64,000 nt of DNA from Cylindrotheca closterium (Eukaryota > Bacillariophyta > Bacillariophyceae > Bacillariales > Bacillariaceae): contig CAKOGP040001668.1 of NCBI GenBank assembly GCA_933822405.4, positions 124,001-188,000 on the forward strand. The letters are read 5' to 3'. This document shows positions 37,417 through 52,934 of the stretch, piece after piece (position 1 is the first letter of the stretch; the number at the start of each line of letters is the position of its first letter). Below the pieces are notes generated by a model. The model did not search any database and was not told the DNA's origin. It was given only the letters and a program-made list of their open reading frames with translations. Both the position numbers and the translations under genes were made by a program.

Positions 37417-40400
37417 CTAAGGTGTGATAACTGTGGCCGCTGTTGGGGTAGAAGTCACTGGTGACGCAGTTGGAGCAGAGGTTATTGGCGCAGCGGTCGG
37501 GGCAGACGTAACAGGAACAACGGTCGGAGCGGCGGTGACGGGAGCAACTGTCGGGGCAGATGTAACTGGTGCCACTGATGGTGCTGCTGTCACAGGGGCA
37601 ACTGTCGGGGCAGAGGTTATTGGTACAGCAGCCACTGGAGCCGCTGTCGGTGCTGTTGTGACAGGAGCCACCGTTGGTGCAGAAGTAATTGGCGTAGCAG
37701 TCGGGGCAGAAGTCACTGGAGCGACTGTGGGGGCCGAAGTTATAGGAGCCACTGTTGGTGCTGCTGTGACAGGGGAAACCGTTGGAGAAGAAGTGAGCGG
37801 CGCAGCAGTCGGGACAGGGGTAGCTGGAGCCGCTGTTGGGGCAGCCGTCACTGGGGAAACTGTTGGAGAGGAGGTTATTGGCGCGGCAGTTGGTGCAGAA
37901 GTGACTGGTGCAATAGTCGGCGCAGGGGTCACTGGGGAAACTGTTGGCGAAGAGGTAATTGGCACAACAGTCGGGGTAGGTGTTACGACCTGCGTGTTGG
38001 TCGGATTCAAGGAGGTGAATTTTGTTCCTTCATAAGCTGGTGAAGGTTGTGTGCTCGGCATTTCCAAAACCCCGATACAGCCCACATTATCCACGCAGCA
38101 ATCGGTGCAACAAGGGCAAGAAACTTCCTCACAGTCAGCCGCGAGTTGAACTCGGGGGCTTCTTGAGCAAAAATCAGAAGGGAGATTTCCCACCACACCA
38201 TTTCTCTCGATTTTGAGGCTAGTCAATGCTGACAAGGAATCAAATGAAGCTGGTACGTCGCCATTTAGTCGGTTGTAAGAGAGATCCAATCGTTCTGCAA
38301 GAATATCAAACAATGAGTCGAACCATACAAAGCAACTATAGTGGAAACGTATGTACCAAACACTTACCAATTGCCGCCATGCCAGCAAATTCAGAGGGAA
38401 TTCTTCCTGTTAGATCGTTTGCGTTCAAAGCCAATTCCGCTTTTAATTGTGGAACAAGACGAATGTTAGAAAACCAATTGGAAAAAATCCAAAATGAGAT
38501 CATTGCCTTACTCAATTGCGACAAGCTTCCAAGTTGAGTTGGCAAACTACCAGAAATTCGGTTTCCATTCAGTTTGAGCGATCTCAAATTTGTGAGGAGA
38601 CCGAGGTTGGGAGGTAGCCCGCCTTCAATATTGTTGTTGTCAAGTCGAAGGTCTGTCAAATTTGAAGCAAGTGATATTTCCATTGGTATTGTTCCCCGGA
38701 GATTATTGGAACTCAAAACGATCCCAGTTATTCGGCCATCAACGTTGCATGAAATACCATTCCATCCGCATTCATTGAAATTTGACAACCAAAAGTTGGA
38801 ATTTGCCCAAAGCTCACCACCAAAGGAGTAATAGCTAGTGACTGCAGTCCACCTTTGAAGCAAATCCGCATCGGACGAGCTTGCGACGTTTGCATCATTT
38901 TGCGTTATCCAACTGAGAGCTCTGTACTGTGGAGAAGTTATATCCGCAAGTGATTGCTCTGATTGAGGCGCTCCGCCTATCAAACGAGCAAGTGTCGCTG
39001 ATAGTAGTGATGCGCTTGTTGGAGGTGGAGTTTGCAAGACTGGGGATGCTGTTGGGGTTGAAGTTTGCAAGACTGGAGCTGGTGTTGGTGGTGGTGTTGG
39101 TGGTGGTGTTGGCGGTGGTGTTGGTGGGGGTGTAGGCCCTGGTGTAGGCCCTGGTGTTGGTGGCGGTGTTGGCGGTGGCGTAGGCCCTGGTGTTGGCGGT
39201 GGCGTTGGTTGCTTGGTTGGATTTTGTGTAGGAAATGTCGTTGGAGCGGGAGTTCGCCGTACCGTTGGTCTAGATGTTGTCGGTGGTCCACGCGTTGGAG
39301 CGGCCGTTGGTTGTCTTGTGAATCTCGTAGGTGAAGATGAAATTGTAGGCGGCACAAACTCCATGGTAGGAACCAGCGACGGAAATACGCTTGGCGCAGA
39401 TGTAGGATTCCAGATGGGAGGAAATGTCACAGGTGCTGCTGACGATGCTGTATTGGATTTTGAAGATACTTGATCTTGCTTGTCGCTTTCCTGAATGATC
39501 AGAATCAGCATAGCAATTGCAGCACCAACAGCCAGAACGAGAATAACCAGAGCCAACTTGAGGAAAAGAAGCCTGTTATTCCGTCTTTGACTATTCCCCT
39601 CCGGGCCCTTATCACCAGACTCTAGATCTTGCGCTGGATTGCCACCACACAAATAAATGAATCCTGGAGGTGGCGGTTTTTCACCTCCAGCAGCGTCATC
39701 GGCGTTAGCTCTGTCTACCAGATCTCGAGGCTTGGCCGCCGAAGGGTTCGACAACGTACTAGCCATTGCACTATTCCCAGCATTGGGTGGCCAAGGGGCA
39801 ATAAAATCATTCGAATCATCTTCAGACATGCTCCTCACCTTTGCCATGTTCTCTGGATCTCCTCTTTCAGGCGACGTTTTTTGTTCTGGCTGCACAGTTC
39901 CAGTTCTCACCAAGCCATAGGTTGCTCCAAGACCACTCGCCACGGCGAGATTGGAGATGTTGCTATCCTGCTCTTGGTCCTTGGTCGTAATGATTTGTCT
40001 GGGAGGAGAATTATTGTTTCGAGGAGGCTGTCTCGCTGGAGCAGTTGAGCTGGCATTCCCCGTTTTCGAAAAGCCGTAGGAATCAGACATCTTGCTACCG
40101 CCAGATGGACTTCTCCGATGAGGACTAATTGGAGGCCTGCCCGACAAAGGACCTGAAATGGTTTCCCTGTTGTCAGCAGGTGGAGTTTCTTTCGGTAGAA
40201 TTTCAGGCATCGGAGTTTCCACATTCGACTTGGGCACGCTGCCTCTTTCATAGGATTGTGACAACAAGGTTGTCCATTGACCACCAGAAGAGCCCGGATT
40301 CCTAGATTTACGAGGAGACTTATTGGATATCGGCATTGTATCACTCTTCACGAAGCCATACGAATCCGACATTTCACTCCTTTTGCTGTTTTCTTTATCA

Positions 40401-50258: not shown

Positions 50259-51862
50259 ATGTTGTCAGAATTGGAACTCCCCGAGTTCCTAATCAACGCC
50301 ATCGATGCTAGCATCCAACACATTTATTCTTATGGTCCCATGGCCGAGAAGACAGTTGTTCTTGGTACGTTTCAATCATCATTGAATCCTCGTACTGTGT
50401 CGCTGGATGGATACTCATTCGTTCTTCTTCTTCTTTGCATTATCTAGTTCCCGAAGTGTTGAGTAGCCAAGTCGGAAATGTTGCGGATGCAATTGGCATG
50501 GACACGGAGACTGTTTCCTACGTTCTTGGAATGTTCCTGTGTTACCCTCTCGGTCTTATCATGTTGGCCATTCCTCACGGAAAGGCTCGTCACCTGTTCT
50601 CTTTTTTGCTTGGAGCATTCCTTTTGCAATTTACCCTGGGCGTTCAATGGATTCACCACATGATCAGTTCACTTGTTGCCTACGCTATGATTTTGGTTCT
50701 ACCACGAAGTACTTTGAAGACGGCTCTTCCCGTCTTCGCCGTCGCGTACATTACTTTGGGTCACCTTCACCGTCAATACATCAATTATCTTGGATGGGAT
50801 TTGGATTTTACCGGTAGTCAGATGGTTCTCACCCAAAAGCTTTACATGATCGCATTCAACTTGTATGATGGGGAACTCTTGGCCAATGGAAAAGAAGATC
50901 GCGCCGCCAAAAAGCTTGCAAAGTTTTCGTTGAAGGAAATCCCTGGACTCCTTGAATTCCTCGGATACACCTTTTGCTTTTCTACAATCCTTGCTGGTCC
51001 TGCTTCTGAGTACATTACTTACGCTCGTGCTTGCGACGGCAGCGCTTTCAAGACTCCTTCTGGCAAACCTTGCAAACCTCCCAGCAACCTCATCCCCACT
51101 CTTAAGCCTCTATGCATCAGTCTTTTCTGCCTTGGTGTCCACCTCACACTCAGTCCCATGTTCCCTCTTTTGAATGAAACTCATCCCCAAACCGGTACAC
51201 CTTTCATCTTGCAAGAGGATTTCTTGGCCCGGCCTTGGTACCTCCGTTTTTTTCACTCTTGGATGGGTCTATTCGCTCTCAGAGAAAAGTACTACTTTGG
51301 ATGGAAGAATGCTGAAGGTGCCGCCAACGTCTGGTATGCTGGTTTCGACGGATTTGACGAGGACGGAAACTCTCTCGGCTGGGAATCTTCGAACAATATC
51401 AACGTTTTTGGTTTCGAACTGGCGCAAGATCTTCAAAGTGCTACAAAGAACTGGAATATCAAAACTTCTTTCTGGTTGACCCGTTACGTCTACATGCGTA
51501 CCAACGGAAACCTTTTGGCCGTGTATGCTTTGAGTGCATTCTGGCATGGGTTCTACCCGGGATACTACATGTTTTTCTTGTCTGTCCCACTTCCGACCAT
51601 CTGCGATCGCATGGCAAAGAAAAAGATCGGTCCTTACTTTTCCAAGTCCAAGTATACGCTATATGGAGTTCTATCTTTCTTGGCCACTTCCATCACCATG
51701 AACTACATGATCTTGCCCTTTGTTATGCTTGCATACAGCTGGTCCTGGGATGCTTACCAGACCAACTACTTCTTTGGTCATATTGGTTGCATCATTTACT
51801 ACATCATTCTGACCATGCTTCCAAAGCCAAAGGTCGCTGATGACAAGAAGAAGGTCGCTTAA
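50259..51862 (+). CDS. MBOAT-family lysophospholipid acyltransferase
   Basis: Exons 50259..50364 and 50448..51862 (83-bp phase-1 intron, GTACGT...TAG), 506 residues. Multi-pass membrane protein with the MBOAT catalytic signatures: NWNIKTSFWLTRYVYMR (with the upstream Asn) and ALSAFWHGFYPGYYMFF with the active His. It has a dilysine-like KKKVA end consistent with ER retention. Motif spacing matches LPCAT/LPEAT-type enzymes that re-acylate lysophospholipids (Lands cycle) rather than DGAT1. Substrate head group cannot be told from the sequence. The first exon supplies the amphipathic N-terminus. It lies 261 bp before the RNA gene cluster, on the same strand. Confidence 0.93.
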
Positions 51863-52123
51863 AAGAGGCGCAAGATCCAAATACATCAAATGCATAAATG
51901 GCCATTGTAGTAGAAGGTTAAGATTCATATGGTCAATGCTACTTCGCATGACACTTCTATTCCCAGGACACTCGTACTGTAAGAAAAAGGTATCTTGTCG
52001 TGATTGGGAGTCAGTGTAGTCAACTCGTGCATAGTAAAAGAGGTAGACAGGTAACCTGCCCGCTCGCGCGGTCGCAGCCACAAAATGTCTCTTCGATCTT
52101 CTGCGTAGTCATAATTTCCTTTT

Positions 52124-52373
52124 GGAGAGGGTGGACAACAAGCATCGAGGAGGGCCCCACCATCCTATGGTCGAGGGCAAGTGTTTTAGCACAACCTTCT
52201 TGGGGAAATTCCCCGGTCGCAAGGGCAGAGAGTGTCGGCCTGGAAACGGGTACCCGCATGCGAGCCGCACTTGCGACGACGGCCTCGGCAAGAGCATTTT
52301 GTGCAGGCTTCATGTGGCGGTCATAGCAAAGTTATGCTTGATTACTCAACGGGGATTATGTCCAGCCTACTCC
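52124..52373 (+). ncRNA. RMRP: RNase MRP RNA (candidate)
   Basis: About 250 nt. GGGGAAATTCCCCGG (52202-52216) followed by GGGCAGAGAGTG (52223-52234) matches, in order and spacing, the CR-I region and following segment of vertebrate RNase MRP RNA. A CR-V-like AACGGGGATTATG (52348-52360) near the 3' end can pair with TCCCCG of CR-I to form the P4 pseudoknot helix. The proposed ends pair as P1: GGAGAGGGTGGACA (52124-52137) with TGTCCAGCCTACTCC (52359-52373), about 13 bp with one bulge and one mismatch. RNase MRP is an essential ribonucleoprotein that cuts pre-rRNA. RNase P RNA is the main alternative, but the CAGAGAGTG segment favours MRP. The ends are inferred from pairing. Confidence 0.72.
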
Positions 52374-52389
52374 TGAGGAAACAACATTT

Positions 52390-52476
52390 GTGTGTATGAT
52401 CCTGCCTGGTGGTGGGTCAAGGCTTCAAACCTTGGGACGCCTAGCGGCGTAGTTGTTCGATTCAACCTTACGCACG
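52390..52476 (+). tRNA. tRNA-Sec(UCA): tRNA-Sec copy 1 (anticodon UCA)
   Basis: 87 nt. Acceptor 9 bp (GTGTGTATG with CTTACGCAC, one U:U at position 8, as in human tRNA-Sec), 6-bp D stem CCTGCC/GGTGGG with 4-nt loop, anticodon arm CAAGG-CTTCAAA-CCTTG with UCA, long variable arm ACGCC/GGCGT, 4-bp T stem GTTG-TTCGATT-CAAC, discriminator G. This is the eukaryotic 9+4 selenocysteine fold. The acceptor fifth/sixth pairs are of the U:A type. Confidence 0.96.
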
Positions 52477-52546
52477 GCGGTGGTTGCACAATAACCACCT
52501 CTTCGCGAAATTTCTTTGTTGAATTTCTTTGTTGAATTTCTTTGTT

Positions 52547-52633
52547 GTGTGCATGATCCTGCCTGGTGGTGGGTCAAGGCTTCAAACCTTGGGACGCCTA
52601 GCGGCGTAGTTGTTCGATTCAACCTTGCGCACG
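52547..52633 (+). tRNA. tRNA-Sec(UCA): tRNA-Sec copy 2 (anticodon UCA)
   Basis: Identical body to copy 1, but the acceptor reads GTGTGCATG/CTTGCGCAC: the U:A pair at position 6 is replaced by C:G, changed on both strands. Preceded by a TTTCTTTGTTGAA triple repeat in the spacer. Confidence 0.96.
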
Positions 52634-52698
52634 TTGGCGGTAGATTCCGTCTCTTGCTTTCCAAACTTCCAACAGAAACTCTGACAAACTGTTTTGCT

Positions 52699-52785
52699 GT
52701 GTGTATGATCCTGCCTGGTGGTGGGTCAAGGCTTCAAACCTTGGGACGCCTAGCGGCGTAGTTGTTCGATTCAACCTTACGCACG
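52699..52785 (+). tRNA. tRNA-Sec(UCA): tRNA-Sec copy 3 (anticodon UCA)
   Basis: Same sequence type as copy 1 (GTGTGTATG/CTTACGCAC). Its 3' flank (GGTGGTTGTACAGTATCCACC) resembles that of copy 1 (GGTGGTTGCACAATAACCACC), so copies 1 and 3 appear to descend from one duplicated unit. Confidence 0.96.
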
Positions 52786-52847
52786 TGGGTGGTTGTACAG
52801 TATCCACCTCTTTCCTCCAGAAAACTTGTTTTGTTTAATTCTTTTTT

Positions 52848-52934
52848 GTGTGCATGATCCTGCCTGGTGGTGGGTCAAGGCTTCAAACCTTGGGACGCCT
52901 AGCGGCGTAGTTGTTCGATTCAACCTTGCGCACG
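52848..52934 (+). tRNA. tRNA-Sec(UCA): tRNA-Sec copy 4 (anticodon UCA)
   Basis: Same sequence type as copy 2 (GTGTGCATG/CTTGCGCAC). Preceded directly by a T6 run that could terminate transcription of the upstream copy. Confidence 0.96.

What the first reader, a model, noticed from the sequence alone, without database searches (positions are those of the whole stretch)
52390..52934. Four tandem selenocysteine tRNA genes in two alternating types with a compensatory acceptor-stem change
Each 87-nt unit folds as a eukaryotic tRNA-Sec: UCA anticodon in CTTCAAA loop, 9-bp acceptor with the U:U mismatch also present in human tRNA-Sec, 4-bp T stem, 6-bp D stem with 4-nt loop, long variable arm. Copies 1 and 3 have U:A and copies 2 and 4 have C:G at acceptor pair 6, changed on both sides, so structure is under selection in all four. 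Most eukaryotes carry one or few tRNA-Sec genes; a tandem array suggests high selenocysteine demand, plausible in a marine alga with many selenoproteins.
Basis: partly seen in the sequence, partly recalled or inferred. Interest (0 to 1): 0.88.

Follow-up and report, generated by a model that had tools for sequence, protein, structure and literature searches.

The report
Diatom selenocysteine tRNA array beside MRP
A diatom genome carries four intact selenocysteine tRNA genes in a row directly behind an RNase MRP RNA gene, without the usual stop signal close behind each tRNA, so some of them may be made as one long precursor; extra copies of this tRNA are already known from a related diatom.

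Summary
Confirmed: four complete tRNA-Sec genes at 52390-52934, + strand (74.0-74.3 bits, cut-off 47; ARAGORN). Copies 1 and 3 are identical, as are 2 and 4; the two types differ only by a two-sided change at acceptor pair 6. A fifth intact copy on another contig has its own two-sided D-stem change. Spacers 1 and 3 are homologous but diverged, while the tRNA pairs show 0 differences in 174 nt: a duplicated two-gene block kept by selection, not an assembly error. The host is a Cylindrotheca-like diatom with Sec-pathway genes.

A multi-gene precursor is my leading, untested reading.

Multi-copy tRNA-Sec with compensatory changes is known from Fragilariopsis cylindrus, and copy number did not track selenoprotein number (PMC5330540, passages), so 'high demand' is unproven.

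The parts
52125..52371 (+). RNase MRP RNA gene, Rfam RF00030 match; P1 helix predicted as 52124-52136 with 52360-52373
   Evidence: 51.8 bits against cut-off 50, E 1.1e-11; only match reported in the genome; P1 duplex -20.3 kcal/mol
52374..52389 (+). 16-nt linker between the predicted MRP P1 helix and tRNA-Sec copy 1, no T4 run
   Evidence: sequence, T-run scan
52390..52476 (+). tRNA-Sec copy 1 (U6:A81 type)
   Evidence: RF01852 74.0 bits; ARAGORN
52477..52546 (+). spacer 1: predicted 8-bp hairpin 2 nt after copy 1, then three 13-bp repeats AATTTCTTTGTTG (the last reaches 52547); no T4
52547..52633 (+). tRNA-Sec copy 2 (C6:G81 type)
   Evidence: RF01852 74.3 bits; ARAGORN
52634..52698 (+). spacer 2: weak predicted hairpin; first T4 at 52692-52695, 3 nt before copy 3
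52699..52785 (+). tRNA-Sec copy 3 (U6:A81 type), identical to copy 1
   Evidence: RF01852 74.0 bits; ARAGORN
52786..52847 (+). spacer 3, diverged homologue of spacer 1; T4 at 52829, T6 at 52842-52847 directly before copy 4
   Evidence: alignment score 66 against maximum 42 of 300 shuffles; T-runs
52848..52934 (+). tRNA-Sec copy 4 (C6:G81 type), identical to copy 2; next T4 416 nt downstream
   Evidence: RF01852 74.3 bits; ARAGORN

Best explanation
Four functional nuclear tRNA-Sec genes arose when a two-gene block (a U:A-type gene, a spacer, a C:G-type gene) was duplicated next to the RNase MRP RNA gene of a Cylindrotheca-like diatom; selection then kept the tRNA bodies while the spacers drifted. 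Together with a fifth, dispersed copy they supply tRNA-Sec for selenoprotein synthesis. Because the array copies lack the close T4 signal of other nuclear tRNA genes, and no T4 lies between MRP and copy 1 or between copies 1 and 2, I infer that they are made within longer precursors, most likely MRP-Sec1-Sec2, with copies 3 and 4 made separately or by read-through, and that RNase P and RNase Z cut them into units. Shown: identity, structure, duplication pattern, missing close terminators, linkage, several Sec-pathway genes. Inferred: expression, co-transcription, processing and polymerase. I hold the shown part at about 0.97 and the shared precursor at about 0.45; the figure below is for the whole.
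For: Covariance-model and ARAGORN identity. Sequence types and spacer homology. 0 of 174 tRNA positions differ between the duplicates against 9 of 58 ungapped spacer positions, Fisher P 2e-6. Copy 5 carries a second two-sided pair change; two complete pairs among 5 variable sites has chance about 0.001 by position alone. T4 within 15 nt: 31 of 36 non-Sec nuclear tRNA loci and Sec copy 5, against 0 of 4 array copies (Fisher P 0.0014); within 40 nt: 35 of 36 against 0 of 4; background for random places of the window 0.08. MRP RNA match ends 18 nt upstream and is the only one reported in the genome. SepSecS, SPS2 with Sec, a SelT-like protein with CVSU, and in-frame TGA at the catalytic site in 5 of 6 GPx loci. 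Precedents for multi-gene small-RNA precursors: plant tRNA-snoRNA dicistrons and S. pombe dimeric tRNA precursors (titles seen in reference lists).
Against: No RNA data. Five of the 36 control loci also lack T4 within 15 nt: three Ala-AGC (34-36 nt) and two Thr-AGT (32 and 58 nt); in the Thr genes a T discriminator followed by TTT makes a T4. Two internal T4 runs (52184, 52297) lie inside the MRP gene, awkward for Pol III, although a tRNA-Lys gene (L060) contains TTTT too. T4 or T6 runs do stand before copies 3 and 4, so the whole array is not terminator-free. Control loci include near-identical gene copies, so the Fisher value overstates independence. The MRP score is only 1.8 bits over its cut-off. 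No related diatom DNA could be examined.
Confidence: 0.6

Rival explanations
1. Four independent Pol III genes, each started from its own promoter, which stop at weak signals such as the short hairpin with UCUU behind copies 1-3 or at distant T-runs; the MRP neighbour is incidental.
For: Predicted hairpins begin 1-2 nt behind copies 1, 2 and 3, with UCUU at or next to the 3' foot of the stem; a B-box-like GTTCGATTC is present in all five copies; T4/T6 runs stand at 52692, 52829 and 52842. Three Ala-AGC loci also have an AGAGG...CCTCT inverted repeat in the trailer before a T-run, the predicted fold in two of three.
Against: Only the copy-1 hairpin clearly beats shuffles (z -2.8; copies 2 and 3: -1.1 and -0.2). 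Behind copy 4 the best fold is a weak one starting 9 nt on (z -1.2) and the first T4 is 416 nt away. Copies 1-2 have only T2-T3 before 52692.
Confidence: 0.33
2. The MRP-tRNA-Sec unit is transcribed by RNA polymerase II, wholly or in part, as reported for the tRNA-Sec gene of Leishmania major (Pol II and Pol III). This overlaps with the best explanation, which leaves the polymerase open.
For: No close Pol III terminators in the array and two T4 runs inside MRP; U6 has TATATATA 23-30 nt upstream and MRP has none there. Precedent: title of the Leishmania paper seen in the reference list of PMC6463643.
Against: Copy 5 has a normal T4 and all copies keep B-box-like sequence; no Pol II promoter was shown. 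MRP RNA is a Pol III product where I know it (recalled).
Confidence: 0.15
3. The array is a silent or redundant relic and copy 5 supplies the tRNA-Sec.
For: Only copy 5 has the normal close terminator.
Against: No decay in any copy: 0 of 174 differences between duplicates against 9 of 58 in the spacer, full covariance-model scores.
Confidence: 0.07
4. Assembly error duplicated one or two copies.
For: Identical tRNA bodies within each type.
Against: The spacers all differ; the one homologous pair (1 and 3) differs at 9 of 58 ungapped positions plus gaps.
Confidence: 0.02

Closest known systems
Multiple tRNA-Sec genes of the diatom Fragilariopsis cylindrus (Secmarker survey, PMC5330540, passages)
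   Same: A diatom (same order, recalled) with several intact tRNA-Sec genes, three with compensatory changes, two of them sharing the same ones
   Different: Eleven non-identical predictions there, two of them disrupted; tandem arrangement and neighbours are not described in the passages seen. Five copies here, four in tandem behind MRP
Tandem and dimeric tRNA gene arrays in a stramenopile (Phytophthora infestans, PMC9584435, passages)
   Same: Tandem tRNA arrays, a third of them with dimeric or trimeric units, attributed to unequal crossing-over
   Different: Thousands of tRNA genes there, the examples in the passages being canonical tRNAs; here two variants of tRNA-Sec, four copies
Plant dicistronic tRNA-snoRNA genes (Kruszka 2003, title seen in the reference list shown)
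   Same: tRNA directly joined to another small stable RNA, tRNA ends used for processing
   Different: Partner here is RNase MRP RNA, the tRNAs follow it (order in the plant genes recalled as tRNA first), and co-transcription is not shown
tRNA-Sec gene of Leishmania major, Pol II and Pol III (title seen in the reference list of PMC6463643)
   Same: tRNA-Sec transcription departing from the ordinary tRNA pattern
   Different: One gene in L. major (PMC2695483, passages); no MRP neighbour mentioned in the passages seen

Membership tests
Eukaryotic tRNA-Sec (RF01852) | Covariance-model score above cut-off over the full model | tested here: met
   74.0-74.3 bits against 47, four of four copies
Eukaryotic tRNA-Sec (RF01852) | UCA anticodon, 9-bp acceptor, 4-bp T stem, 6-bp D stem, long variable arm, G73 | tested here: met
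   G at the last base of each unit
Eukaryotic tRNA-Sec (RF01852) | Expressed, serylated and converted to Sec-tRNA | not testable with these tools
   needs RNA; SepSecS and SPS2 genes are present; PSTK, eEFSec and SBP2 were not searched
Genomes with several bona fide tRNA-Sec genes | More than one intact copy, distinct flanks, compensatory differences | tested here: met
   five copies over the cut-off, two different two-sided pair changes
RNase MRP RNA (RF00030) | Score above cut-off over the full model, with closing P1 helix | tested here: met
   51.8 bits against 50, full model; P1 duplex and fold. The margin is small. RF00009 (RNase P) gave no match at E 0.001 in the genome, but no control genome rang either
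Ordinary Pol III tRNA gene | T4 or longer close behind the tRNA | tested here: not met
   distances 215, 58, 43 and 416 nt for copies 1-4; copy 5 at 2 nt; 31 of 36 control loci within 15 nt
Polycistronic small-RNA gene | Same strand, short spacing, no terminator between units | tested here: inconclusive
   met for MRP-Sec1 (18 nt) and Sec1-Sec2 (70 nt), which hold no T4; not met for Sec2-Sec3 (T4) and Sec3-Sec4 (T4 and T6)
Polycistronic small-RNA gene | Shared precursor RNA | not testable with these tools
   no transcript data

The most novel reading that the evidence does not exclude
A nuclear operon-like unit in which RNase MRP RNA and selenocysteine tRNAs are made as one precursor, the tRNA 5' end (cut by RNase P) freeing the 3' end of the MRP RNA, so that supply of an rRNA-processing RNA and of Sec decoding is coupled in a diatom.
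Probability: 0.35. Interest if true: 0.62.

Novelty: new variant of a known kind. Interest (0 to 1): 0.42.

Why it matters
Why some genomes keep several tRNA-Sec genes is open; the Secmarker survey calls their significance unclear and found no link to selenoprotein number (PMC5330540, passages). Here two tRNA types differ by one base pair, so their expression can be told apart in small-RNA data. The MRP linkage and missing close terminators suggest that organisation for expression, rather than demand alone, may matter, and RT-PCR can test this.

Tried and rejected
Related loci: exact and degenerate tRNA-Sec patterns in viral contigs gave 0 matches, and a pattern in genome contigs (bacteria and archaea) gave 0; metagenome scans were capped at 0, so conservation of the array in other diatoms is untested. 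RNase P RNA (RF00009) and SRP RNA (RF00017) gave no match in the genome, but no control genome rang over the cut-off either, so absence is not shown. Shared promoter elements: the U2 upstream regions shared no word of 8 or more bases with those of U6, MRP or Sec copy 5. U6 has TATATATA 23-30 nt upstream; MRP has none there. A 12-base word (TTGGAGAGGGTG) occurs 42 nt before both U6 genes and at the MRP 5' end, and a 9-base word far upstream is shared with one U6 copy; I could not explain these and treat them as possible coincidence.

Hairpins behind copies 1-3 as a terminator class: weak against shuffles for copies 2 and 3, kept only as a rival. In one search I measured terminators without turning minus-strand loci; those counts were discarded and redone. 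In one search the base printed as 'disc' is for most genes the first trailer base, because the tRNA match already includes the discriminator; this shifts distances by about one base and changes no count. Rows left out of the terminator count: of the 63 matches, 28 on low-GC contigs C7, C95 and C70 (10, 14 and 4; taken by me as organellar from GC and gene density) were dropped and all 35 others used; one tRNA-Ser (L006) was added, giving 36. One search scored 63 of 1908 candidates, so the genome has more tRNA genes than these.

Papers: searches for multiple or tandem tRNA-Sec genes and for MRP RNA joined to tRNA genes listed no tandem tRNA-Sec array and no MRP-tRNA unit by title and start of abstract; listings were cut at 15 of 149, 20 of 116 and 12 of 580, complete in the others. 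(Cylindrotheca genome; diatom U6 promoters) gave nothing that I used. Only open-licence PMC text is covered. One paper sought by DOI was not held.

Full report
Observation. Each scores 74.0-74.3 bits against a cut-off of 47, over the whole model, with UCA anticodon, 9-bp acceptor containing U8:U79, 6-bp D stem, 5-bp variable arm, 4-bp T stem and G73. The units are at 52390-52476, 52547-52633, 52699-52785 and 52848-52934. Copies 1 and 3 are identical and copies 2 and 4 are identical; the types differ only at positions 6 and 81, which pair with each other.

Other copies. A search of the own genome gave 11 matches at E up to 0.001 (53 of 3704 candidates scored), five of them over the cut-off: the four copies and one on contig C124 (72.4 bits). 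The other six all lie below the cut-off; three of them were among the eight loci fetched, and ARAGORN calls tRNA-Ser or tRNA-Leu at those places. The C124 copy is of the C:G type and differs from copies 2 and 4 at three sites: U11 to C, and C13:G26 to U:A, a second two-sided change. Two complete pairs among five variable sites has a chance of about 0.001 by position alone and 0.00016 when the new letters must also pair.

Origin of the array. Spacer 1 and spacer 3 align with score 66 against a maximum of 42 in 300 shuffles; the other five of six spacer or flank pairs do not exceed their shuffles. The simplest history is one duplication of a block holding copy 1, spacer 1 and copy 2. Since then the spacer has collected 9 differences in 58 ungapped positions, besides gaps, and the two tRNA pairs 0 in 174 (Fisher P 2e-6). 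This shows constraint on the tRNA bodies, or gene conversion confined to them within each type, and makes assembly duplication very unlikely.

Host and pathway. An MBOAT acyltransferase encoded upstream (50435-51862; Pfam MBOAT) is 94% identical to its best match, a transcriptome protein labelled taxon 2856, which is Cylindrotheca closterium, Bacillariales. The genome has SepSecS, SPS2 with TGA at its active site, a SelT-like protein with CVSU, and six GPx loci, taking the two C529 matches as exons of one gene, of which five have in-frame TGA at the catalytic place; in two of these five the stretch before the TGA is outside the match. The TGA counted in the second SepSecS match lies in the stretch between the two exon matches, probably an intron, and is not taken as Sec. 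I did not count the whole selenoproteome, so 'high demand' cannot be judged here. Diatoms in the algal survey have 20-44 selenoprotein genes (PMC7539508, passages), and the Secmarker survey found no correlation of tRNA-Sec number with selenoprotein number (PMC5330540, passages).

What lies upstream. An RNase MRP RNA gene, the only match reported in the genome (25 of 346 candidates scored), runs from 52125 to 52371 on the same strand (51.8 bits against cut-off 50, E 1.1e-11). Its P1 helix is predicted at 52124-52136 with 52360-52373, so 16 nt separate that helix from copy 1, and these hold no T4. By my own arithmetic, chance placement of one gene within 20 nt upstream of one of two tRNA-Sec loci in 47.6 Mb is about one in a million. 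The pair was noticed afterwards, so this overstates the surprise, and the linkage may be historical rather than functional.

Terminators. I measured the distance from the tRNA end to the first T4 or longer run for 36 nuclear non-Sec tRNA loci: 31 of 36 within 15 nt and 35 of 36 within 40 nt, where random places of the window give T4 within 15 nt in 8%. The five beyond 15 nt are three Ala-AGC loci (34-36 nt) and two Thr-AGT loci (32 and 58 nt), the latter with a T discriminator followed by TTT. Sec copy 5 has T4 at 2 nt. The array copies have it at 215, 58, 43 and 416 nt: 0 of 4 within 15 or 40 nt (Fisher P 0.0014 for the 15-nt cut; the loci are not all independent). Both U6 genes end in a T-run. 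A T4 stands 3 nt before copy 3 and a T6 directly before copy 4, so transcripts from copies 1-2 and from copy 3 could stop there.

Reading. The tRNA genes pass every sequence test made here. MRP, Sec1 and Sec2 form a same-strand run with no T4 from 52301 to 52691, which fits one precursor cut at tRNA ends. Two T4 runs inside MRP (52184 and 52297) mean that Pol III would have to read through them, or that Pol II is used, as reported for Leishmania tRNA-Sec (title seen); a tRNA-Lys gene here also contains TTTT, so read-through is plausible. Small predicted hairpins with UCUU behind copies 1-3 offer a rival view of weak individual terminators, but only the first beats shuffles clearly, and copy 4 has no such element.

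Novelty. Multi-copy tRNA-Sec with compensatory changes is known, F. cylindrus being the nearest case found, and T. cruzi has eight unclustered copies. Tandem and dimeric arrays of tRNA genes are known in another stramenopile and in plants. I saw no report of a tandem tRNA-Sec array or of MRP RNA joined to tRNA genes in the listings, some of which were cut short and all of which cover open-licence PMC papers only. Hence 'new variant of a known kind', with the co-transcription part unproven.

Noticed in passing
52125-52371: RNase MRP RNA gene, the only match reported in the genome, directly upstream of the array.
   Followed up: yes
52122-52133 and loci L040/L041: The 12-base word TTGGAGAGGGTG occurs at the 5' end of the MRP gene and 42 nt before both U6 genes; meaning unknown.
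   Followed up: partly
L048, L049, L050: Three tRNA-Ala(AGC) loci have an AGAGG...CCTCT inverted repeat in the trailer before a T-run at 34-36 nt; it is the predicted hairpin in two of three.
   Followed up: partly
52509-52547: Three perfect 13-bp repeats AATTTCTTTGTTG fill the end of spacer 1 up to the first base of copy 2.
   Followed up: no
L067 (contig C5): Two U6 genes in inverted orientation about 8 kb apart with nearly identical near flanks and a TATATATA box.
   Followed up: partly
L069-L075, L068, L046: Exons with in-frame TGA at Sec places: five of six GPx loci, SPS2, and a SelT-like protein.
   Followed up: partly
37475-37956: Long imperfect repeats with periods of 27, 54, 69 and 108 bp, all multiples of three; not checked for coding.
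   Followed up: no
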